Below, piece by piece: positions 15,379 to 37,953 of a stretch of DNA of 64,000 bases; position 1 is the stretch's first letter; each line of letters begins with the position of its first letter. The notes under the pieces were generated by a model. The model ran no database searches, was not told the DNA's origin, and saw only the letters and a program-made list of their open reading frames with translations. The stretch spans positions 186,001 through 250,000 of the forward strand of contig JAAFJO010000004.1 in assembly GCA_013298145.1 (NCBI GenBank), written 5' to 3'. This stretch comes from Betaproteobacteria bacterium (GTDB lineage Bacteria; Pseudomonadota; Gammaproteobacteria; Burkholderiales; Casimicrobiaceae). The translations under genes and the position numbers were made by a program.

Positions 15379-15404
15379 CAATCAGCATCAAGACGTTATC
15401 TCAT

Positions 15405-15477
15405 ATTTATTGCGGGCTAGCAGGATGAAATAGAGTTTCTAGCGTCTATTTGTATTCGTACGATAGCCCTGATATTT
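15405..15477. repeat. CTAG-type repeat cluster upstream of thyA
   Basis: Half-units ATTTATTGCGGGCTAGCA (15406-15423) and the inverted ATAGCCCTGATATTT (15463-15477) can pair through GGGCTA/TAGCCC. A third partial unit TTTCTAGCGTCTATTT lies at 15436-15451. The cluster occupies most of the GST-thyA gap. Confidence 0.6.
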
Positions 15478-15568
15478 CGGGGTGGTAAAGTACTTAGTCG
15501 TTAAAATTTCCTTGCCCGATAGAGGCTACAAATCGATCAGTTTTCACCGCCTGACTAAACTTCTCGAC

Positions 15569-16459
15569 ATGAACTCAGTTGCCGCCCCGAACAACGTGCT
15601 TCCCGCTCTGGAGCAGCCTTACCTCGACCTCCTCGCGCACGTGCGCAAACACGGCGCGCAAAAGGGTGATCGTACCGGCACCGGCACGCTCTCCACTTTC
15701 GGTGCGCAACTTCGCTTCGATCTGCAACGCGGCTTTCCGCTCATCACAACGAAGAAGGTTTTCTGGAAAGCGATCGCGTATGAATTGCTCTGGTTCTTGC
15801 GTGGCGATAGCAATGCGAAATGGCTGCAAGAGCGCGGCGTCACCATCTGGGATGAATGGGCGAAATCTGATGGCGATTTAGGGCCTGTCTACGGCGTGCA
15901 GTGGCGATCATGGCCGACGCCCGATGGCGGCCACATTGATCAAATCGCCGAAGTCGTCAAGCAACTCAAAACCAATCCCGATTCGCGCCGCATCATCGTC
16001 TCCGCCTGGAACGTGAGCGAGCTGTCGAAGATGGCGTTGATGCCGTGCCATGCGTTTTTTCAGTTCTACGTTTCCCCCTCTCCCTCCGGGAGAGGTCGCG
16101 ACGAAGTCGCGGGTGAGGGAAAAGCGCCAAAGGCGCGTCTCTCCTGCCAACTCTACCAACGCAGCGCCGACCTCTTCCTAGGCGTTCCGTTCAACATCGC
16201 GAGCTACGCGCTACTCACGCACATGCTCGCGCAACAATGCGATCTCGACGTCGGCGACTTCATCTGGACCGGCGGCGATTGCCACATTTATTCGAACCAC
16301 TTCGAACAAGTCGATCTACAACTCACCCGCGAACCACTCGCGCCGCCGACGCTCAACATCAAGCGCAAACCCGCTTCGATTTTTGATTACGAGTATGAAG
16401 ATTTTGAAGTGGTCAACTACCAATCGCACGCGGCGATTAAGGCGCCGGTGGCGGTGTAG
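15569..16459 (+). CDS. thyA: Thymidylate synthase ThyA with in-frame repeat insertion
   Basis: Converts dUMP to dTMP with methylenetetrahydrofolate. From the ATG at 15569 the protein is 296 residues (E. coli 264). Motifs: [43 protein letters not shown], the catalytic Cys160 in [51 protein letters not shown] and the C-terminal IKAPVAV. Between FFQFYV and LSCQLYQ, where relatives have a short turn, lie about 20 extra residues (169-189, starting [12 protein letters not shown]). They are encoded by a palindromic repeat found elsewhere in the window. Reading frame and catalytic residues are kept. The frame is open 29 codons further upstream, but that extension is not family-like. Confidence 0.95.
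16070..16136 (+). repeat. Palindromic repeat (CCTCTCCC family) inserted in frame within thyA
   Basis: CCCTCTCCCTCCGGGAGAGG forms a perfect hairpin. It is followed by GTCGCGACGAAGTCGCGGG (a second small inverted pair) and GTGAGGG. The same hairpin-plus-GTGAGGG arrangement occurs in the glc gaps at 25722-25852 and 26882-27003. The element adds about 20 codons with no stop. Confidence 0.8.
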
Positions 16460-16620
16460 TCCAAAAGAAATCGCTGAGCACAGACATCACAGCACTCTGT
16501 GATGTGATCGCGCGACAAGTAGCAGAAGAGTTCGCTCTGCTCAATCGCTCGAATCGCGTGCTCTGCCCTAGTCATGACTTTGGCGCGGACATCACTTCTG
16601 AATTTGAAGGTACTTAACCA
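16460..16620 (+). other. thyA-RCC1 gap with startless reading-frame remnant
   Basis: From 16462 to 16618 one frame is open and looks coding-like (it includes CDVIARQVAEEFALLNRSN and ends EFEGT before TAA), but it has no start codon and no family I recognise. It may be the tail of a gene truncated when the RCC1 segment was joined to thyA. Promoter elements for the RCC1 gene must lie here, but I cannot place them. Confidence 0.3.
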
Positions 16621-19620
16621 ATGTTTACAGCTTTCCGGATTTTTACGCCCTTAGCCCTGTCGCTGCTTACGCTCCTCTCCGCGACGAGCCACGCGAGTCC
16701 GCCAATGATCAGTACTGGCTTGGCGCACTCGTGCGCTCTTGATGTGAATGGCGTAGTCACTTGCTGGGGTTGGAATTACTCTGGGCAACTGGGTGTCGCG
16801 GGTAGCGACGCACTTACCGACGCAAAACACGTCTCCGCAGGCGCATCACATACCTGCCTAACCACGACTGGAGGGGCGGCTAAGTGCTGGGGGGCGGACT
16901 ACGACGGACAGCTTGGCGGCGCTACTGCAGTATCACAGCCTGCGTACGTTGTTCCAGGGCTTGAATCTGGAGTAAAGGAAGTTCAATCGGGTTGGTCGCA
17001 CACATGTGCGCTCATGGACGACGGAAGTGTGAGGTGCTGGGGTCGCAACACACTAGGACAACTTGGAATCGGAGCGGCGTCCGCTTCAGCCTTACCGACT
17101 GCCGTGTCTGGATTGCCTCTGCGCGCCACTCAACTCCGGCTCAGTGCGATGCACACCTGTGCGCTACTTGCGAACGGCGAGCTTTGGTGCTGGGGTACAG
17201 GCATCCCCGTCGTCGGTGTTAGCGACGTCCCAGTGAAGGTCGGCGAAGCCTCCCTCTCGATAGCAAAGCTAAGCCTAGATCAGAACAGAACTTGTTTTGT
17301 TACGACGGGCGGCGCGGGAAGGTGCTGGGGCTACGTGGGCGGCGCATTAATTACGCTGCCCGGCCTCGAGACAAATGTCGTAGAGCTTGTTCGAGGCAAC
17401 CTCAACGCGTGCGCACTTAAGCGAGATGGTTCAGTGTGGTGTGATGGCTACGGCTATTACGGCCTTCTTGGTGCCTCGCGCAGCGGGGAAGATGAACCAA
17501 TGGCCCAGCTCGAGGGAATGCCGGTTGGCGTGATTCAAGTTGGTCTAGGCCAGGATTTTGCATGCGTACTGACCGTATACGGTGGCGTCAAATGTTGGGG
17601 GAAAAACGATCTGGATCAGCTTGGGAGCGTTGGCGACGAGCAGTTCTCTTCGATAACGCCTACCCAAGTTTTGGGTCTACCGGGCGCTGCCGCTTCGCTG
17701 AGCGTTTCTGGCGCTAACGCCTGTGCAAGGCTTACCAGCGGCTTAGTTTACTGTTGGGGTTTGAATAGCAACGGGCAGCTAGGTGATAACACGACCGTGA
17801 ACCGTTCGGTAGCGACGCCAACACGTCCGATCGGTCACTCTTCCAAGCAGATCACGGCAGGTGGTAGAGCCACATGTTCAGCGGGGACTAATGGAGCCGT
17901 AAGCTGCTGGGGCGAGCGATTTGGCTTCGCAGCGATAGATCCCGCCCCAGTCTCATTTAATATCGGTGCAGACCCTAGCACGTTCAATGTTTCCGAGCTT
18001 GCCGTAGAGTTTTCGCATCGCTGCGCCGCCTCACTCGACCGCGTTCGCTGCGGCGGCACGGCGACAAGCACAATCCCAGCAATGCAATCAAGAACGTTGA
18101 TTGACGTAGAGGGCATCGCTGGTGCCGTAAGTTCACTGACGCTCGGAGGCAATACTGCGTGCGCTGTTGTTGACGGCGCCGTGAAGTGCTGGGGAGACAA
18201 CCGCTACGGACAACTCGGCGACGGTACGACGGAGGAGCGAAATACTCCCGTTACACCAATCGGGCTCTCCACGGGCGTTAGGAAAGTCGTGATGAACTCA
18301 TGGCATGCGTGCGCGCTTATGCAGGTGGGCGCTCCAAAGTGTTGGGGATATAACTGGAGCGGACAGCTCGGCGACGGCTCGACCAATGCGGGTTATGAGC
18401 GCGCTATTGCGCCAGTGGTAGCGTCGAAACTTCCTTCGAATGCAACCGACATCGTCGTGGGGAACGGATTCACATGCGCGCTCGCTAGTGGTGCACTTTC
18501 CTGCGTGGGCGAGATACTCCCCGGCGTTCCAGCGCAGCAGATTCTGGGGGTTCCCACTGATATTCGCTTCGTTGCCGCTGGCGGAGTTACGACTTGTGTA
18601 ATTCGAGAAAGTGGTGCTGTCCTATGTTGGGGGGGGAACTTTGGCGGCGTTCTCGGTCGCGGTACGTTCGACTATCGCGCGGTGCCAAACAAATTTGTTG
18701 AAGGGCTTAACGCGCGCGGCGCGATGACCTTAATCGTTAGCAACGCTAGCCCGCGTATTGGTGAGTCGATCACAGCGAATGCGACAGTACCCGGACCAAG
18801 CGTAACGGGATCGGTGCAATTTGACGTAGACGGAGAAACGATTCCGGGTTGTGCTTCGGTTGCCGTTGTCAGTGGCGTGGCGACTTGCACCGCGACTCTC
18901 TCTAAAGCTGGCCCACAGCAGCTTCGTGCGCGCTACGCGGGCTCAGCAACGCTACCCAGTCTAGTAGCAGCGAGAGCCATCGTTGTGACCGGAAATGTAG
19001 CGAGCACGGTTGAGCTTTTGATTCCGAAACTGATCGCACGTGGCGAATCCACATTTGTTCTAATCAGAACGACGGGCGATGCGACCGCAATCCCGACAGG
19101 CGAAGTCGCGGTTAGTGCAGGTGACAAAACCTGCGTTGCACAGCTAGACGCGACAGGGCAAGGGTGGTGCACGTTTACTTTCGACACTCGCCGCGTGGAC
19201 CAAACGGCAAGTGCAGACTATCGTGGCGATGCCCGCTTCCGAGCCGCTACCGCGAGTCAAATCTTCCATGTAGTCGCACAGATGGATATCAATGCCGATG
19301 GTCAAGTCGATCTTTCCGATGCGCTTATGGCGATTAGGCACTCCGCTGGGATGGTAGGCGCTGCGCTGCTCGTGCCTAGCGCGCCCGCTGCGACGCGAGT
19401 CGACGAGAACGATGTCCGAGCAAGGCTTGACACGATGCGATACCGCGGACTTGACATCGATCTCGACGGGGAGGTTTCACTTACCACTGACCTGCTAATC
19501 TTTGTTAGATACCTCAGTGGCTTGCGCGGAAGTGACTTGGTTAGCGGCGCTCTTGGACGGTTCGCACTCCGAAGAAATCCACAAGAGATTGAAGCGCAAC
19601 TTCGTTTTCTTATCGACTGA
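16621..19620 (+). CDS. Secreted RCC1-repeat protein with Ig-like and dockerin-like domains
   Basis: A 999-residue exported protein. The signal peptide ends at SHA (about 25). Residues about 28-690 hold 14 RCC1-like repeats, each with a Cys before and in the 'CALxxxGxVxCWG' core and often closing with GQLG; this would make two seven-bladed propellers. Two Ig-like domains follow (about 700-790 and 795-890), each with a Cys pair. The end (about 893-999) has two Ca-binding loops, DINADGQVDLSDAL and DIDLDGEVSLTTDL, arranged as in a type I dockerin. It is probably a cell-surface or extracellular adhesion or binding protein; the ligand is unknown. The gene lies between thyA and a remnant of a second thyA end, which suggests acquisition. 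Confidence 0.85.
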   Translation: MFTAFRIFTPLALSLLTLLSATSHASPPMISTGLAHSCALDVNGVVTCWGWNYSGQLGVAGSDALTDAKHVSAGASHTCLTTTGGAAKCWGADYDGQLGGATAVSQPAYVVPGLESGVKEVQSGWSHTCALMDDGSVRCWGRNTLGQLGIGAASASALPTAVSGLPLRATQLRLSAMHTCALLANGELWCWGTGIPVVGVSDVPVKVGEASLSIAKLSLDQNRTCFVTTGGAGRCWGYVGGALITLPGLETNVVELVRGNLNACALKRDGSVWCDGYGYYGLLGASRSGEDEPMAQLEGMPVGVIQVGLGQDFACVLTVYGGVKCWGKNDLDQLGSVGDEQFSSITPTQVLGLPGAAASLSVSGANACARLTSGLVYCWGLNSNGQLGDNTTVNRSVATPTRPIGHSSKQITAGGRATCSAGTNGAVSCWGERFGFAAIDPAPVSFNIGADPSTFNVSELAVEFSHRCAASLDRVRCGGTATSTIPAMQSRTLIDVEGIAGAVSSLTLGGNTACAVVDGAVKCWGDNRYGQLGDGTTEERNTPVTPIGLSTGVRKVVMNSWHACALMQVGAPKCWGYNWSGQLGDGSTNAGYERAIAPVVASKLPSNATDIVVGNGFTCALASGALSCVGEILPGVPAQQILGVPTDIRFVAAGGVTTCVIRESGAVLCWGGNFGGVLGRGTFDYRAVPNKFVEGLNARGAMTLIVSNASPRIGESITANATVPGPSVTGSVQFDVDGETIPGCASVAVVSGVATCTATLSKAGPQQLRARYAGSATLPSLVAARAIVVTGNVASTVELLIPKLIARGESTFVLIRTTGDATAIPTGEVAVSAGDKTCVAQLDATGQGWCTFTFDTRRVDQTASADYRGDARFRAATASQIFHVVAQMDINADGQVDLSDALMAIRHSAGMVGAALLVPSAPAATRVDENDVRARLDTMRYRGLDIDLDGEVSLTTDLLIFVRYLSGLRGSDLVSGALGRFALRRNPQEIEAQLRFLID

Positions 19621-19689
19621 ATGCCTAGTCGCTGACAAGTCATGCGTTAACAATTCGCGAGAACAAGTTGGCTCGGATTGACGCCCAGA

Positions 19690-19793
19690 ACATCGACACA
19701 TAGCGCAGGATCGCATCGAATCTTTGTCTCGGAGATTTTGGAGTAGAAAACTATCGATCACACACAGCTATGAAGGCGCCGGTGGCGGTGTAA
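19690..19793 (+). pseudogene. Decayed 3' end of a second thyA
   Basis: The last 59 bases before the TAA (19734-19792) match the 3' end of the intact thyA at about 48 of 59 positions by my count, and the final 20 bases are identical. Translation gives DFGVENYRSHTAMKAPVAV against [19 protein letters not shown] in ThyA. Upstream, weaker similarity reaches about 19690 but with an in-frame TAG and an apparent deletion of several bases. It is a fragment without the catalytic region. The next gene starts 14 bases after the TAA, as would be expected if this was once the functional thyA end. Confidence 0.8.
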
Positions 19794-19807
19794 ATGCGCC
19801 AAAGATC

Positions 19808-20092
19808 ATGTTGGTTGCCTCTCAACCCTACAACGCGCTCAAGTTCGATCCATTGCTTGAATCGCTCACAGAGCGACGGGTGAAGCTTTTCTGTGCCGTG
19901 GGTGTCGACGCGGAACGATGGGGAGAAGCGTTTGATTGGTTGGTCGTCGATCTTCACATTAGGGACGAATCCACCAATGACTACTCGCCGTTAACGTCTT
20001 CGCATCACGATGAGTCACAAGCCGAAGTTGTCGAGTTTGCGAACCTAATTTCTGACGAATTCGGCGCTGAAGTCGAGATTATTCGGGTGTAG
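19808..20092 (+). CDS. Hypothetical protein, 94 residues
   Basis: Small soluble protein from the ATG at 19808 (MLVASQPYNALKFDPLLESL). It has CAVGVDAERWGEAFDWLVVD in the middle and ends EFGAEVEIIRV; alternating strands and helices suggest a compact alpha/beta fold. I do not recognise a characterised family. A longer frame from 19724 is open but runs through the thyA remnant in another frame, so I rejected that start. It probably stood directly downstream of the original thyA. Confidence 0.65.
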   Translation: MLVASQPYNALKFDPLLESLTERRVKLFCAVGVDAERWGEAFDWLVVDLHIRDESTNDYSPLTSSHHDESQAEVVEFANLISDEFGAEVEIIRV

Positions 20093-20217
20093 CCCGGCTG
20101 CTCGCACCCGGGTTCCTCAAGCCCAACGAAGTCACACCTCGTCGCCGCGATGCAGCGAAGCGAAATCGAGGGTAGTCGAATTGAAGTGCCTCGATTCCGC
20201 TAGCGCTTCATGCGAGG
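20093..20217. repeat. Intergenic inverted repeats between convergent genes
   Basis: The gap contains GTAGCCCGG...CCCGGGTT-like and CGAAGCGAAATCGAGG / CCTCGATTCCGCTAGCG inverted pairs, ending close to the ydcH-like stop at 20218. The two neighbouring genes converge here, so these hairpins may act as terminators, but no U-tract is present. Confidence 0.4.
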
Positions 20218-20463
20218 CTACGCCGCCACGGCCATCCGATACAACTGATCTTTGAGGTGGAGCCGCTGCTTCTTCAATGCCTCCAGCGAGTGATCGCTCA
20301 TCGGTGCGACGCCGGTTTCGCTCTTTGTGATGTCAGCATCGACGGCGTCGTGCTGTTCGAGTAAGTGCGCGAAATGTGCATCGCTGTGTCTGAGGCGACC
20401 GATTGCATCGGCGAGATTTGGAAATTCGCGATGAAGGGCGTGGGACAACAGATCTGATTGCAT
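20218..20463 (-). CDS. YdcH family (DUF465) protein
   Basis: An 81-residue helical protein beginning MQSDLLSHALHREFPNL. The C-terminal half has the DUF465 pattern of a long basic helix, LEALKKQRLHLKDQLYRM, after an Asp/Glu-rich turn; E. coli YdcH has LKKQKLQLKDE at the same place. The start is the ATG at 20463, with GGAGAAG nine bases upstream. The frame is open for 59 more codons, but that part is out of family and crosses the helicase start. Its function is unknown. Its start lies 140 bases from the divergent helicase gene. Confidence 0.8.
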   Translation of the reverse strand: MQSDLLSHALHREFPNLADAIGRLRHSDAHFAHLLEQHDAVDADITKSETGVAPMSDHSLEALKKQRLHLKDQLYRMAVAA

Positions 20464-20603
20464 TCGATGGCTTCTCCAAGGTTGGGCCGCGAGAGAGGCT
20501 GCGGCAAAGTTCAATCCTCGGCAGTGTAGGCAGCTCCAATCTTGCGGCACTTGATATAGCGCAAGGCAATGAGTCGTAATCGCGCTGGTGACACAATTCA
20601 TGC

Positions 20604-23264
20604 ATGCCTCCACGCGCGAAATCTCCCCCGCCGATTGCACCCGCGATTTCAGCGTTTTTCGCTGCGCGCGGGTGGGAGCCTTTTCCGTTTCAACGTGAGG
20701 TGTGGGCAGCGCAACGCGACGGCAAAAGCGGTTTGATTCACGCGCCTACGGGGTTTGGGAAGACGTATGCGGCGTTTTGTGGGTTGGTCGCAGCTGACTA
20801 CCTCCCCTTCAAGGGGAGGGCGGGGGTGGGGATGGGGTTCGTCCCTCATTCCGAAGAACCCCATCCCCCTCCCACCTCCCCCTTGAAGGGGGAGGAGAAG
20901 CGCGCACCACCCCTCACCATCCTCTGGATCACCCCACTCAAAGCTCTCGCGGGTGATTCCTATCTCTCGATCAAAGAAGCAGCCGCTGCAATGCGCCCCG
21001 ATTGGACGGTGGGCATTCGCACGGGCGACACATCAAGCGCGGAACGGGCGCGGCAAGATAAGCGCCTGCCCACGGTGTTGCTCACCACGCCGGAATCACT
21101 CGCGCTGCTGCTCAATAAAGCCGATTGGCGAGACCGCGTGAGCGCGCTTCGGGCTGTAGTCGTGGACGAATGGCATGAGCTGCTCGGATCGAAGCGCGGT
21201 GTGTTGCTTGAGCTTTGTCTTGCGCGTTTGCGCAACGCGAAAAAGCCGAGCGCCGACCCACTGATGACATGGGGGATGAGCGCAACGCTCGGCAATCTGG
21301 ATGAGGCGATGCGGGTGCTCATCGGGCCTGATGCTGCGATGCCCGTGGGAAACACCGCGCGGCAAGGCGGCGGTGTGTTGATTTCGGCGAACATAAAAAA
21401 AGACATCGTGATCGATTCCCTCATCCCCGACACGATCGAGCGTTTTCCGTGGGCCGGGCATTTGGGCACGCAGATGGTGAAGCGCGTGGTTGAAAAAATT
21501 GGCGAAGCGAAGAGCACGCTCATCTTCACCAACACGCGCTCGCAGACGGAGCTTTGGTATCAGGCGCTTCTCGACGCAGCGCCCGAACTCGCGGGGCAGA
21601 TTGCGCTGCATCACGGCTCGCTCGATAAGGCCACACGCGACTTCGTGGAAGATGGCATTCGTTCAGGGCTCTTGCGCGCGGTGGTGTGCACGAGTTCGCT
21701 TGATCTCGGCGTCGATTTTCGTCCGGTTGAACAGGTGCTCCAGATCGGCTCGCCGAAAGGCATTGCGCGACTCTTGCAGCGCGCGGGGCGCAGCGGTCAT
21801 CAGCCGGGTGCGAAATCGCGAGTGACAGTGGTTCCCACGCACGCGCTTGAGCTGGTTGAAGCAGCCGCGGCGCGGAAGGCCGCGATGGACGGACGTATCG
21901 AAACTCGCCGTCCGCTCGGTCAACTGGGTGGCGCGGGCCCTGCTCGCGGCGCGTGGCGCGCGCTCGATGTGCTTTCGCAGCATCTGGTGAGCTGCGCGCT
22001 CGGCGGTGGCTTTGATGCCGATGAACTGCGCGCGGAAGTTGAAACCAGCGCGAGCTTCATAAACCTCACCGATGAAGAATGGCAGTGGACGCTTGATTTC
22101 GTCACCAAAGGCGGCGCGTCGCTTTCCGCGTATCCCGATTTTCATAAAGTTACGTTCGACGCGGAAACCAAGCGCTACGTCGTCGCGGATCGAAAGATCG
22201 CGCAGCGCCATCGAACGAATATCGGCACCATCGTTTCCGAAGCGTCCATCAGCGTTCAGTTCCAAGGCGGCGCACGGCTTGGTCACGTGGAAGAGGATTT
22301 CGTCGCTCGATTGAATCCGGGCGATGCGTTTATTTTCGCGGGGCGCGTCGTGGAATTCATTCGCGTGCGCGAGATGACTGCGTATGTGAAACGAGCCACG
22401 AAAAAGCGCAATCTCGTGCCGCGATGGGCAGGCGGAAAAATGCCGCTCACTACGCAGCTTGCAGACGCAACGCGAGCGCTGATCGCGGAGGCAAAAAACG
22501 GTATTTATTCGACGCCGGAAACGCAATGTTGCAAACCGATTTTCGAGCTGCAACACCGTATCTCAGCCGTGCCCGATGAAAAGCGATGGCTCATCGAAAC
22601 CTACAAAGATCGCGAAGGCTGGCACTTGTTTTTCTTCCCTTTCGAAGGGCGGCTCGTGCATCTCGGCTTGGCCACGCTCTTCAGCTATCGCCTCGCGAAA
22701 GACGAAGCGAAGACGTTCTCGATTTCGATGAACGATTACGGCTTTGAACTCGTTTCACCGACTGAACAAACGCTGACGAAAGAAACGTTGCATCAGTTGC
22801 TAGACACGCGAAACGTTGAGGCCGACATCTTGCACGGGCTCAACGCTGCCGAGCTTGCAAAGCGGCAGTTCCGCGAAATCGCCCGCGTCGCCGGACTGAT
22901 CGACCAAGGCTATCCCGGCGCAAATAAGTCGAACAAACAATTGCAGATGAGCAGCGGCCTCTTATTCGACGTATTCACCAATTACGACAGCGCGAATCTG
23001 CTGCTCAAGCAAGCGGTACGCGAAGTGATGGAGCGGCAACTCGAAGCAACGCGTTTGCAAGCGGCGCTCTTGCGACTGCGCGCGAGCGAAGTGCTGCTCA
23101 AACATTGCGAACGCTACACGCCGTTTTCCTTTCCACTAATGGTGGAACGCTTGCGCGAAAAACTATCCACCGAGCAAATTGAAGATCGTGTGGCGCGGAT
23201 GGTGGCGGAGATTGAGGGAGAGGCGACGACTTCGTTCGACTTGCCCCGTAAACGAAAGACCTAG
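20604..23264 (+). CDS. Ligase-associated DNA-damage-response DEXH-box helicase (Lhr-like)
   Basis: An 886-residue superfamily 2 helicase of the type usually paired with an ATP-dependent DNA ligase and an MBL-fold exonuclease, neither of which is in the window. Motifs: Q-motif-like PFPFQREVW, Walker A HAPTGFGKT (46-54), motif Ia ITPLKALAGDS, DEWH box VVDEWHELLGSKRG, GMSATLGN, TLIFTNTRSQTE, DLGVDFRPVEQV and QRAGRSGH, followed by the long Lhr winged-helix/C-terminal region. Residues about 67-100 (LPFKGRAGVGMG to SPLKGEE) are extra relative to the family and are encoded by a palindromic repeat in the linker between motifs I and Ia. No stop or frameshift results. Confidence 0.9.
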   Translation: MPPRAKSPPPIAPAISAFFAARGWEPFPFQREVWAAQRDGKSGLIHAPTGFGKTYAAFCGLVAADYLPFKGRAGVGMGFVPHSEEPHPPPTSPLKGEEKRAPPLTILWITPLKALAGDSYLSIKEAAAAMRPDWTVGIRTGDTSSAERARQDKRLPTVLLTTPESLALLLNKADWRDRVSALRAVVVDEWHELLGSKRGVLLELCLARLRNAKKPSADPLMTWGMSATLGNLDEAMRVLIGPDAAMPVGNTARQGGGVLISANIKKDIVIDSLIPDTIERFPWAGHLGTQMVKRVVEKIGEAKSTLIFTNTRSQTELWYQALLDAAPELAGQIALHHGSLDKATRDFVEDGIRSGLLRAVVCTSSLDLGVDFRPVEQVLQIGSPKGIARLLQRAGRSGHQPGAKSRVTVVPTHALELVEAAAARKAAMDGRIETRRPLGQLGGAGPARGAWRALDVLSQHLVSCALGGGFDADELRAEVETSASFINLTDEEWQWTLDFVTKGGASLSAYPDFHKVTFDAETKRYVVADRKIAQRHRTNIGTIVSEASISVQFQGGARLGHVEEDFVARLNPGDAFIFAGRVVEFIRVREMTAYVKRATKKRNLVPRWAGGKMPLTTQLADATRALIAEAKNGIYSTPETQCCKPIFELQHRISAVPDEKRWLIETYKDREGWHLFFFPFEGRLVHLGLATLFSYRLAKDEAKTFSISMNDYGFELVSPTEQTLTKETLHQLLDTRNVEADILHGLNAAELAKRQFREIARVAGLIDQGYPGANKSNKQLQMSSGLLFDVFTNYDSANLLLKQAVREVMERQLEATRLQAALLRLRASEVLLKHCERYTPFSFPLMVERLREKLSTEQIEDRVARMVAEIEGEATTSFDLPRKRKT
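20801..20897 (+). repeat. Palindromic repeat pair (CTCCCCTTCAAGGGGAG family) in frame within the helicase gene
   Basis: A left hairpin CTCCCCTTCAAGGGGAG with GTGGGGATGGGGTT, then the inverted right half AACCCCATCCCCCTCC and CCCCCTTGAAGGGGG. The same two-hairpin unit occurs between genes at 24378-24480 and 37799-37900. Here it is translated through and its length keeps the frame. Confidence 0.85.
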
Positions 23265-24350: not shown

Positions 24351-24377
24351 AGTCGTTTAGCGACTCACGGCTGCTGT

Positions 24378-24480
24378 CCCTCCCCCTTCAAGGGGGAGGC
24401 TAGGAGGGGGATGGTTTTCGGTTCAACTCCAATCAACCGAACCCCATCCCCACCCTAGCCCTCCCCTTGAAGGGGAGGGG
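24378..24480. repeat. Palindromic repeat pair (CTCCCCTTCAAGGGGAG family)
   Basis: Left half CCCTCCCCCTTCAAGGGGG with AGGGGGATGG, right half ACCCCATCCCCACCCTAGCC and CTCCCCTTGAAGGGGAG in inverted orientation. It fills the gap between glcF and the thioesterase; its halves could form one long stem in the transcript. Confidence 0.85.
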
Positions 24481-24486
24481 ATGTGG

Positions 24487-25707: not shown

Positions 25708-25721
25708 ATTCAGCTACGTGT

Positions 25722-25852
25722 TCCCTCTCCCGCAGCGCGGGAGAGGGCTAGGGTGAGGGCGGTTGCACCTTATCAGAATTCGATAAACGACGATTGCCCT
25801 CACCCGCCCTGTCGGGCACCCTCTCCCGCGCTGCTAGAGAGGGAAGGAAACA
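25722..25852. repeat. Palindromic repeat pair (CCTCTCCC family), overlapping the glcE 3' end
   Basis: Left unit CCCTCTCCCGCAGCGCGGGA with GGGTGAGGGC; right inverted unit GCCCTCACCCGCCC with CCCTCTCCCGCGCTGC. The right unit covers the last 15 or so codons of glcE and provides its TGA stop. Confidence 0.85.
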
Positions 25853-26870: not shown

Positions 26871-26881
26871 GGTTTTCCTTT

Positions 26882-27003
26882 CCTTCTCCCGCAGCGCGGG
26901 AGAAGGTGCCCGATAGGGCGGATGAGGGCGGCGGTCTTCTATTCACTTTGGATAAAAAACACCGCCCTTACCCTGGCCCTCTCCCGCGCTGCGGGAGAGG
27001 GAA
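26882..27003. repeat. Palindromic repeat pair (CCTCTCCC family) between glcE and the FAD oxidase
   Basis: Left unit CCTTCTCCCGCAGCGCGGGA and GGATGAGGGCGG, right inverted unit CCGCCCTTACCCTGGCC and CTCTCCCGCGCTGCGGGAGA. It ends two bases before the stop of the upstream gene (27005) and abuts the glcE ribosome-binding site. Confidence 0.85.
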
Positions 27004-36094: not shown

Positions 36095-37798
36095 ATGACG
36101 CACCCTAACCATCCTCCTGTAACAGCGCTGCCTCGCTCCGTGCGCGCGCCGCGCGGAAGCACACTGACTTGTAAGAGCTGGCTCTCTGAAGCCGCCTACC
36201 GCATGATTCAAAACAATCTTGACCCCGAGGTTGCAGAAAATCCAGATGCGCTCGTCGTCTACGGTGGGATCGGGAAAGCAGCGCGCAACTGGGATTGCTT
36301 CGAAGCGATTCTCAAATCCCTGCGCGAGCTCACCGATGACGAATCGCTCCTGATTCAATCTGGTAAACCGGTCGGTGTGTTCAAAACGCATCCCGATGCA
36401 CCGCGCGTTTTGCTGGCAAATTCGAACCTCGTGCCGAAGTGGGCAACGTGGGAGCATTTCAGCGAACTCGATCGCAAGGGCCTGATGATGTACGGCCAGA
36501 TGACCGCTGGCTCTTGGATTTACATCGGCTCACAAGGCATCGTACAAGGGACATACGAAACTTTCGTTGAGGCTGGACGCCAGCACTTCGGTGGCAACCT
36601 CACAGGAAAGTGGTTTTTGACTGCGGGCCTAGGCGGAATGGGCGGTGCGCAGCCGCTCGCGGCGTCGTTCGCAGGGGCGTGTTCGCTCAACATTGAATGC
36701 CAGCAGTCGAGCATCGATTTCCGCTTAAAGACCAAATACGTCGATGAACAAGCAACGAGCATCGACGATGCATTAGAGCGAGTCAAGCGCTATACGAGCG
36801 AAGGAAAGGCGATCTCAATCGCGCTCCTCGGCAACGCTGCGGAAATTCTCCCCGAGCTAGTGCGTCGCGCGAAAGCGGATGGCGTGAAGCCCGATCTGGT
36901 GACTGACCAAACCTCGGCCCACGATCTTGTCAACGGCTATCTGCCTGCAGGTTGGACGTTGCAGCAATGGCAGACCGCGCGGGCCGACGAGTCGCAACAT
37001 GCGCAGCTTCGCGACGCCGCTGCAAAATCTTGCGCGGTTCACGTGCAAGCCATGATCGATTTCGCGGATATGGGTATCCCGACGGTCGATTACGGCAACA
37101 ACATTCGTCAGGTCGCGTTCGATCAGGGCGTTACTCGCGCATTCGATTTCCCTGGGTTTGTTCCGGCCTACATTCGCCCGCTTTTTTGTCGCGGCGTCGG
37201 CCCGTTTCGCTGGGTAGCGCTGTCAGGTGATCCAGAAGATATTCGAAAAACAGACGCCAAGATCAAAGAGCTATTCCCCGACAACCGGCACTTACACCGC
37301 TGGCTCGATATGGCGGGTGAGCGAATTGCGTTTCAAGGATTGCCCGCGCGCATTTGCTGGATCGGTCTGGGTGAGCGGCATCGCGCCGGCCTTGCGTTCA
37401 ACGAGATGGTGAAGCGCGGTGAGTTGAAAGCGCCCATCGTGATTGGTCGCGATCACCTCGATTCAGGATCGGTGTCGTCACCGAATCGTGAGACTGAGGC
37501 AATGATGGACGGATCTGACGCAGTTTCCGATTGGCCACTACTCAACGCGCTGTTGAACACGGCGGGAGGCGCGACCTGGGTATCGCTCCATCACGGCGGC
37601 GGCGTCGGTATGGGTTATTCCCAGCATTCAGGCGTAGTGATCGTTGCTGATGGCACTGAAGCTGCCGCAAAGCGGATCGAACGAGTGCTATGGAACGACC
37701 CGGCAACGGGCGTCATGCGACATGCTGATGCGGGCTATGAGGTAGCGAAGCAGTGTGCGCGTGAGCATGAGCTACGTCTGCCGATGCTAGGAAGGTAG
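36095..37798 (+). CDS. hutU: Urocanate hydratase HutU
   Basis: A 567-residue NAD-dependent enzyme converting urocanate to imidazolonepropionate. N-terminal [47 protein letters not shown] (NAD site), [28 protein letters not shown] and the C-terminal [21 protein letters not shown] all match the family. GGAGG lies eight bases upstream of the ATG. First gene of the plus-strand hut operon. Confidence 0.95.
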
Positions 37799-37900
37799 TC
37801 CCCTCCCCTTCAAGGGAAGGGTTAGGGTGGGGATGGGGTTCGCGCCCCATCCGCCACAAAACCCCATCCCCCTCCTAGCCTCCCCCTTGAAGGGGGAGGG
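37799..37900. repeat. Palindromic repeat pair (CTCCCCTTCAAGGGGAG family) between hutU and hutH
   Basis: It begins directly after the hutU stop: CCCCTCCCCTTCAAGGGAAG and GTGGGGATGGGGTT, then the inverted half AACCCCATCCCCCTCC and CCCCCTTGAAGGGGG. It could fold as a long stem in the hutUH transcript. Confidence 0.85.
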
Positions 37901-37953
37901 ACACTCGGCGGGGATATTGGCCGCACACGACACAGATTTTTGGAAAGCATGGA

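What the first reader, a model, noticed from the sequence alone, without database searches (positions are those of the whole stretch)
16070..16136. Palindromic intergenic-type repeat translated inside thymidylate synthase
ThyA carries about 20 extra residues (169-189) directly after the active-site segment [10 protein letters not shown], where homologues have a short turn. The DNA for this stretch is a hairpin unit (CCTCTCCC...GGGAGAGG plus GTGAGGG) that also fills intergenic gaps in the glc operon. Frame and catalytic residues are preserved. Protein-coding palindromic repeats are known mainly from Rickettsia (RPE); a similar process in a proteobacterial essential gene would be unusual. The decayed second thyA end downstream makes the history of this locus more interesting still.
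Basis: partly seen in the sequence, partly recalled or inferred. Interest (0 to 1): 0.72.

Follow-up and report, generated by a model that had tools for sequence, protein, structure and literature searches.

The report
Mobile palindrome translated inside thymidylate synthase
A small, probably mobile DNA palindrome sits in-frame in a surface turn of this bacterium's thymidylate synthase, and it belongs to a kind of repeat that elsewhere brackets an uncharacterised DNA-cutting enzyme gene, which may be what moves it.

Summary
ThyA (CDS 15569-16459) has 22 residues (169-190; 16073-16138) where E. coli ThyA has a 4-residue turn. The DNA is a 46-nt two-hairpin palindromic element (16077-16122). Its family has 28 matches in this genome and 33 in sister G006, which shares the insert; the other 15 genus genomes have 0-6.

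The turn is a recurrent landing site. In the genus it holds four other palindromic inserts, a non-palindromic 25-residue loop, or the plain turn. In the own genome, 12 of 30 copies examined lie in-frame inside six genes: ThyA, MnmG (four), acyl-CoA dehydrogenase (four), GuaA, LysE, GcvP.

New lead: the one DUF559 (Vsr-like nuclease) match in the genome is bracketed by inverted copies of this element and sits in-frame inside MnmG. Bracketing is general: of class-wide DUF559 loci, 23 of 29 have inverted-flank scores >=20, against 19 of 910 random placements. RAYT loci show no such hairpins (0 of 16).

Best reading: the ThyA insert is a nuclease-less copy of a DUF559-associated palindromic element. 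Insertion is well supported; nuclease-driven mobility is inferred. Protein-coding REPs outside Rickettsia are already published.

The parts
15569..16459 (+). thyA CDS (thymidylate synthase, 296 aa with insert); ORF open from 15482
   Evidence: Pfam PF00303; PDB match 1qqq E 4.6e-124; one ThyA match and no ThyX match in own genome
16073..16138 (+). 22 inserted codons ([22 protein letters not shown]) in place of the 4-residue turn
   Evidence: alignment of 48 ThyA sequences, some partial, of 30 and with 1qqq
16077..16095 (+). first hairpin CCTCTCCC-TCC-GGGAGAGG, near constant in the family
16096..16111 (+). second hairpin TCGCGACGAAGTCGCG; stem sequence varies between copies, still pairs over >=4 bp in 21 of 27 parsed copies
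16112..16122 (+). tail GGTGAGGGAAA
16124..16136 (+). small third hairpin GCGCC-AAA-GGCGC, not shared by sister G006
25721..25845 (.). related inverted pair of palindromic repeats
26880..27003 (.). related inverted pair of palindromic repeats
20801..20895 (.). CCCCTTCAAGGGG-type inverted pair
   Evidence: same type brackets DUF559 genes in congeners
24377..24481 (.). CCCCTTCAAGGGG-type inverted pair
37798..37902 (.). CCCCTTCAAGGGG-type inverted pair

Best explanation
The insert is a copy of a small mobile palindromic element: hairpin CCTCTCCC-N3-GGGAGAGG, a variable second hairpin, tail GGTGAGGGAAA, about 46 nt. It landed in-frame in the beta-hairpin turn after the active-site strand of ThyA and is read as a flexible surface loop. 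SHOWN by sequence: the repeat identity, the in-frame position, the sharing with sister G006, palindromic inserts of different sequence at the same turn in congeners, in-frame copies in other housekeeping genes, and bracketing of DUF559 (Vsr-like PDDEXK nuclease) genes by inverted copies of this kind. INFERRED: the full element is a palindrome-DUF559-palindrome cassette whose nuclease cuts or copies the hairpin ends and so spreads both the cassette and nuclease-less copies such as the one in ThyA; selection then keeps only in-frame insertions in turns and linkers. Also inferred: the loop is translated in the cell and ThyA stays active.
For: Insertion. The family is numerous only where this ThyA insert occurs: 28 matches in G000, 33 in G006, 0-6 in the other 15 genus genomes. 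Recurrence at one turn: G001 (two thyA genes, two different inserts), G010, G007+G002. In-frame in MnmG, acyl-CoA dehydrogenase, GuaA, LysE, GcvP; GuaA has about 19 extra residues at the repeat against 5tw7. DUF559: the single own-genome match is bracketed by this family inside MnmG. Genus: inverted-flank score above 26 in 17 of 23 testable loci, maximum 26 in 538 random placements (2 of 25 skipped at contig ends). Class: 23 of 29 score >=20 against 19 of 910; Fisher p 3e-29, though placements within a locus are not independent. C/T-G/A hairpins in both flanks: 11 of 25 genus and 20 of 30 class DUF559 loci, 0 of 16 RAYT loci, 0 of 1400 random placements. Cassettes in-frame in DnaG (3), LipB (3), MnmG (2), hydantoinase B (2), HODM-like (1), with congeners showing empty, repeat-only or cassette states at the MnmG, LipB and DnaG sites. 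ThyA inserts of G000, G006, G001a and G010 match DUF559 brackets above all 79 controls. 8 of 12 in-gene copies but 2 of 18 others are at sites shared with G006 (p 0.004). No ThyX. The AF2 model shows the insert as a loop between strands 162-169 and 190-201.
Against: No movement was observed and no DUF559 activity was tested. No ThyA carrying DUF559 was seen in the genus genomes with a readable turn. DUF559 could be a passenger that homes into palindromes. Six of 29 class loci and six of 23 genus loci fall below the thresholds, and only 3 of 29 class loci exceed the highest random score (37). Four of 17 genus genomes have no DUF559 match, among them G009 with 6 copies of the repeat. Any-flank hairpins are also fairly common at random placements in DUF559 loci (62 of 487, 99 of 608), and RAYT loci have none even at random placements (0 of 305), so their contrast partly reflects a low local background. 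RAYT loci are themselves bracketed, by other REPs (9 of 16 score >=20). The G007/G002 ThyA insert and the 25-residue loops are about at control level and G001b is marginal, so not each insert at this turn can be assigned to this family. In GcvP the repeat gives no net length gain. DUF559 of LipB and of hydantoinase B do not form host-site clades. The AF2 model is shallow (30 sequences) and also weak at residues 148-159.
Confidence: 0.66

Rival explanations
1. The palindromes spread by some other means (RAYT, replication slippage, recombination) and DUF559 is a homing-type nuclease gene that invades palindromes, so it ends up bracketed by split or duplicated copies. ThyA then carries an ordinary REP-like insertion.
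For: Repeats are numerous where DUF559 has a single match; G009 has 6 repeat matches and no DUF559 match. Repeat-only states occur at MnmG, LipB and DnaG sites in congeners. DUF559 of the DnaG site and of the MnmG site each form a clade, as homing genes would.
Against: Genus RAYT loci have no hairpin of this kind in a flank (0 of 16) and several show other REPs. The own genome has one weak Y1_Tnp match, over the cut-off. Bracket families differ between DUF559 loci, yet in most loci left and right match each other.
Confidence: 0.25
2. The loop is an old lineage-specific ThyA loop that happens to look like the repeat.
For: G004, G011, G013 and G015 have a 25-residue loop at the same site; many Burkholderiales have 10-13 residues there.
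Against: The DNA matches dispersed copies in the own genome, best E 3.7e-12. Other congeners have different palindromic inserts at the turn. The 25-residue loop is about at control level against the repeats.
Confidence: 0.03
3. The hairpin acts in the thyA mRNA or DNA (attenuation, stability, supercoiling) and its coding is incidental.
For: Strong RNA fold. The second stem pairs over at least 4 bp in 21 of 27 copies with 13 different sequences.
Against: The same elements sit in unrelated genes and in both orientations. In the first 16 insert codons the only two differences from G006 are synonymous, and one breaks a pair of the first stem; this is too little data to decide.
Confidence: 0.05
4. 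Assembly error or thyA pseudogene.
For: Several relatives are fragmentary assemblies.
Against: Own genome 99% complete in 21 contigs; the same kind of insert in the separate G006 assembly; intact frame and conserved segments; the 106 codons after the insert show 26 synonymous and 5 nonsynonymous changes against G006; no other ThyA or ThyX match.
Confidence: 0.01

Closest known systems
Rickettsia palindromic elements (RPE)
   Same: short palindromic repeats inserted in-frame in unrelated genes
   Different: no sequence comparison made; here linked to a bracketed nuclease gene, in Burkholderiales
REP/BIME and REPtron (RAYT bracketed by REPs)
   Same: palindromes in inverted pairs, a nuclease gene bracketed by them, intragenic copies known (PMC3733652, passages)
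   Different: no GTAG/CGTC tag seen, and DUF559 instead of a Y1 transposase; RAYT loci of the genus show other REPs
TM_ECO / intrastrand triplex motif (PMC4666352)
   Same: C/T arm, two G/A arms, GGGTGAGGG-like third strand, inverted pairs
   Different: second loop is a 13-17 nt stretch, mostly a hairpin, instead of 3 nt; here also inside genes, whereas the paper says always intergenic in E. coli MG1655
Vsr-like homing endonucleases and inteins (recalled, not looked up)
   Same: small nuclease inserted in conserved genes at fixed sites
   Different: no splicing domain or intron seen; the insertion stays in the reading frame

Membership tests
Rickettsia palindromic element | palindrome inserted in-frame in unrelated genes | tested here: met
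   six genes in own genome
Rickettsia palindromic element | sequence homology to RPE families | not tested
   no RPE sequence was compared
GTAG/CGTC REP superfamilies | terminal unpaired GTAG or CGTC tag | tested here: not met
   by inspection of 27 copies parsed with a pattern that starts at CCTCTCCC and ends in GGTGAG.G
REPtron | RAYT (Y1_Tnp) gene bracketed by the same repeat | tested here: not met
   0 of 16 testable genus RAYT loci have this kind of hairpin in a flank; 20 loci fetched, 3 not found by the probe, 1 at a contig edge
TM_ECO | CCCTCNCCC N3-6 GGGNGAGGG N3 GGGNGAGGG | tested here: not met
   second loop is 13-17 nt in the 27 parsed copies against N3
Intragenic site shared by different REPs | different repeats at one site in orthologues | tested here: met
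   ThyA turn; PMC3733652 reports a like case in Xanthomonas recB
Homing endonuclease | cleavage of the empty allele | not testable with these tools
   no enzyme data
DUF559 | Pfam PF04480 over cut-off | tested here: met
   own-genome match 115.9 bits against cut-off 20.6
Thymidylate synthase | PF00303 and active-site PCH segment | tested here: met

The most novel reading that the evidence does not exclude
DUF559 (Vsr-like) genes across Gammaproteobacteria are the autonomous form of a so far unrecognised class of mobile element whose ends are CCCTCTCCC-type (triplex-type) palindromes. These elements insert in-frame into conserved genes (DnaG, MnmG, LipB, ThyA) without splicing, and their nuclease-less copies are the widespread palindromes for which I found no known mobiliser.
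Probability: 0.5. Interest if true: 0.9.

Novelty: new variant of a known kind. Interest (0 to 1): 0.8.

Why it matters
It suggests that palindromic mobile DNA repeatedly adds residues to essential enzymes in one bacterial lineage, with one turn of ThyA holding at least five different palindromic inserts within one genus. It also gives a testable candidate mobiliser for a common repeat kind, and a first role for DUF559, which Pfam lists as of unknown function. If right, it adds a nuclease class and an insertion mode that leaves the element in the protein, unlike inteins and introns.

Tried and rejected
RAYT as mobiliser: not supported for this repeat kind within the genus. Rfam on 15400-20000: one hit, below its gathering score. 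E. coli ycjD as a clean mobility case: the gene is in 3365 of 5426 genomes with a TM_ECO-like copy about 165 nt after its stop, but the one strain without it that I opened has other genes there, so it was dropped. Order-wide loops: 394 of 399 genomes had a ThyA match but the match list was cut; by my reading of the listed lengths (not scripted) none outside the genus gained more than about 13 residues, so longer ones may be missed. Taxonomy below order was not resolved; Burkholderiales rests on L108 (JANXUB010000016.1), which has the contig length and loop of G001:C58. Literature: 9 searches. 'DUF559' gave 14 papers, seen as a listing only; I saw nothing on palindrome bracketing. PMC3733652 and PMC12306157 were seen as passages; PMC4666352 as passages plus sections 16 and 18 whole. 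Most subscription papers are not covered.

Full report
OBSERVATION. ThyA of this Burkholderiales genome has an intact frame. Codons 16073-16138 encode [22 protein letters not shown] between FFQFYV and LSCQLYQRS, where E. coli ThyA has a 4-residue turn. The DNA folds into stacked hairpins (-37.7 kcal/mol, z -3.7). It has 38 other matches in the own genome at E<=10; the best ones are 83-97% identical over 31-53 nt. One ThyA match and no ThyX match were found, so ThyA is probably the only thymidylate synthase. The AF2 model (30 sequences, mean pLDDT 79) places the insert as a low-confidence loop between two strands; residues 148-159 are weak too.

THE ELEMENT. Of 30 copies fetched, 27 fit one pattern: CCTCTCCC-N3-GGGAGAGG, a spacer of 13-17 nt, then GGTGAGGG(AAA). 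In 21 of 27 the spacer contains a stem of at least 4 bp, with 13 different stem sequences, so pairing rather than sequence is kept. Stops appear in 1-14 of 27 copies depending on frame, fewest on the reverse strand. It resembles the TM_ECO triplex motif (PMC4666352, section 16), with the 3-nt second loop replaced by the hairpin.

NOT ONLY THYA. Twelve of the 30 copies lie in-frame inside genes: ThyA (1), MnmG (4), acyl-CoA dehydrogenase (4), GuaA (1), LysE family (1), GcvP (1) (the four MnmG copies share one ORF, as do the four acyl-CoA dehydrogenase copies, by locus coordinates). Of the other 18, L002, L012 and L029 were Pfam-tested: no domain spans the repeat in L002 or L029, and L012 has no match. 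The remaining 15 were not tested. GuaA shows about 19 extra residues at the repeat against 5tw7; GcvP shows no net gain against 9uz6.

THE TURN IS A HOT SPOT. In the genus (G000-G016; G009 had no ThyA match, G002 only a part), the same turn holds: this element (G000, G006); another CCCTCTCCC element (G001, contig C58); a CCCCTTCAAGGGG inverted pair (G001, contig C194); a triple CCTCCCCC repeat (G010); a GAGCTTGTCGAAGGG repeat (G007, G002); a 25-residue non-palindromic loop (G011, G004, G013, G015); or 4 residues (G014, G012, G005, G008, G016, G003). On a thyA tree built without the loop the states are scattered: G010 groups with loop-free G014 (support 100), and G012 with loop-bearing G011 and G004 (93). 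That fits at least five palindromic insertion or replacement events. G001's two thyA genes (88.6% nt identical) may be a duplication or a mixed MAG. Outside the genus, family members with a readable turn have 4 residues, and many other Burkholderiales have 10-13. The repeat family follows the insert: 28 matches in G000, 33 in G006, 6 in G009, 4 in G016, 1 each in G003, G008 and G011, 0 in ten others.

DUF559 CASSETTES. Pfam of MnmG showed a DUF559 domain inside it, with two copies of the element on the left and two inverted copies on the right, one of them incomplete. In the genus 13 of 17 genomes have DUF559, 25 matches in all. Eleven sit in-frame in host genes: DnaG (G011, G004, G001; inserted before the C-terminal tail), LipB (G003, G010, and G005, judged by motif and cut by a contig end), MnmG (G000, G006), hydantoinase B (G013, G003), and a HODM-like gene (G016, host domain shown on one side only). 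Comparing left flank with inverted right flank: mean score 32 over 23 testable loci (2 of 25 skipped at contig ends), against 12.1 over 538 random placements; 17 of 23 exceed the random maximum of 26. Over the class, of 30 loci fetched 29 were testable; mean 27.5 against 11.5; 23 of 29 scored 20 or more against 19 of 910 random placements; 3 of 29 exceeded the random maximum of 37. Hairpins with C/T and G/A arms in both flanks: 11 of 25 genus DUF559 loci, 20 of 30 class loci, 0 of 16 RAYT loci, 0 of 487, 608 and 305 random placements; in at least one flank 22, 27 and 0, against 62, 99 and 0 random. RAYT loci are bracketed by other inverted sequences: 9 of 16 score >=20, against 9 of 493 random. 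Of 6 long class-level ORFs tested, 4 had a host domain: on both sides of DUF559 for an aminotransferase (L281) and a type I specificity subunit (L292), on one side only for L288 (specificity subunit) and L275 (DNA methylase).

SITE STATES. MnmG (12 of 16 loci parsed): cassette 2, repeat-only 4 (G011, G001, G010, G014, judged from translated repeat motifs), neither 6. LipB (19 loci): cassette 3, repeat-only 2 (both G014), linker of 2-17 residues 13, one paralogue without the motif. DnaG tail (11 genomes parsed): cassette 3, repeat-only 1, neither 7. DUF559 domains form a clade for the DnaG site and for the MnmG site, but not for LipB or hydantoinase B (22 sequences). ThyA inserts of G000 (42 against a control maximum of 25), G006 (39, 24), G001a (39, 19) and G010 (47, 34) match DUF559 brackets better than all 79 control windows. 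G001b (26, 23) is marginal, and G007 (15, 14) and the 25-residue loops (16-17 against 16-20) are about at control level; the unrelated G039 loop (15, 12) shows how little small margins mean.

TURNOVER. Regions around all 33 G006 matches were fetched. Of the 30 own-genome copies, 10 have both flanks at a G006 copy: 8 of 12 in-gene copies and 2 of 18 others (Fisher p 0.004; 0.007 after collapsing MnmG and acyl-CoA dehydrogenase copies). In-gene copies persist and the others turn over, as expected for a mobile element that is hard to remove cleanly from a gene.

INTERPRETATION. Shown: insertion, in-frame reading at the sequence level, recurrence, and DUF559 bracketing. Inferred: translation in the cell, that DUF559 moves the palindromes, and that the ThyA copy is a nuclease-less derivative. 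The chief rival is that DUF559 homes into palindromes spread by something else.

KNOWN WORK. Intragenic REPs in proteobacteria are published (PMC3733652, passages), including different REPs at about the same site in recB of two Xanthomonas species. TM_ECO is reported as always intergenic in MG1655, with no association to mobile elements found (PMC4666352, section 18). I saw no paper on DUF559 with palindromes in the searches listed under Tried and rejected.

Noticed in passing
window 16460-20650: G006 has sequence like window 20655-21341 shortly after thyA; here about 4 kb with an RCC1-repeat-like gene (16621-19620, named by eye) and a second, diverged thyA 3' end (19733-19792) intervene, as if a segment was integrated at the thyA end.
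   Followed up: partly
L040 300-820 (G007): A RAYT-like gene lies directly downstream of thyA, with a REP reading GTGGGAGCGGGCTTGCCCGCGA beside it.
   Followed up: no
G001 contigs C58 (L062) and C194 (L037): Two thyA genes with different palindromic inserts in one assembly: duplication or mixed MAG.
   Followed up: no
L224 (G009 MnmG): The MnmG linker carries another repeat-like peptide (GWVERSDTHHPNPL..), perhaps a further translated repeat family.
   Followed up: no
L293 3201-3420 (E. coli MG1655 ycjD): E. coli's DUF559 gene ycjD has a degenerate CCCTCTCCC hairpin over its stop codon and a full TM_ECO-like copy about 165 nt after it; the gene is in 3365 of 5426 genomes.
   Followed up: partly
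L113 and L139 (other Burkholderiales ThyA): Turns reading APSPLAGEPAR and APSTGSGQAK look like short remnants of translated repeats; L113 is not above bracket controls and L139 is by one point only.
   Followed up: partly
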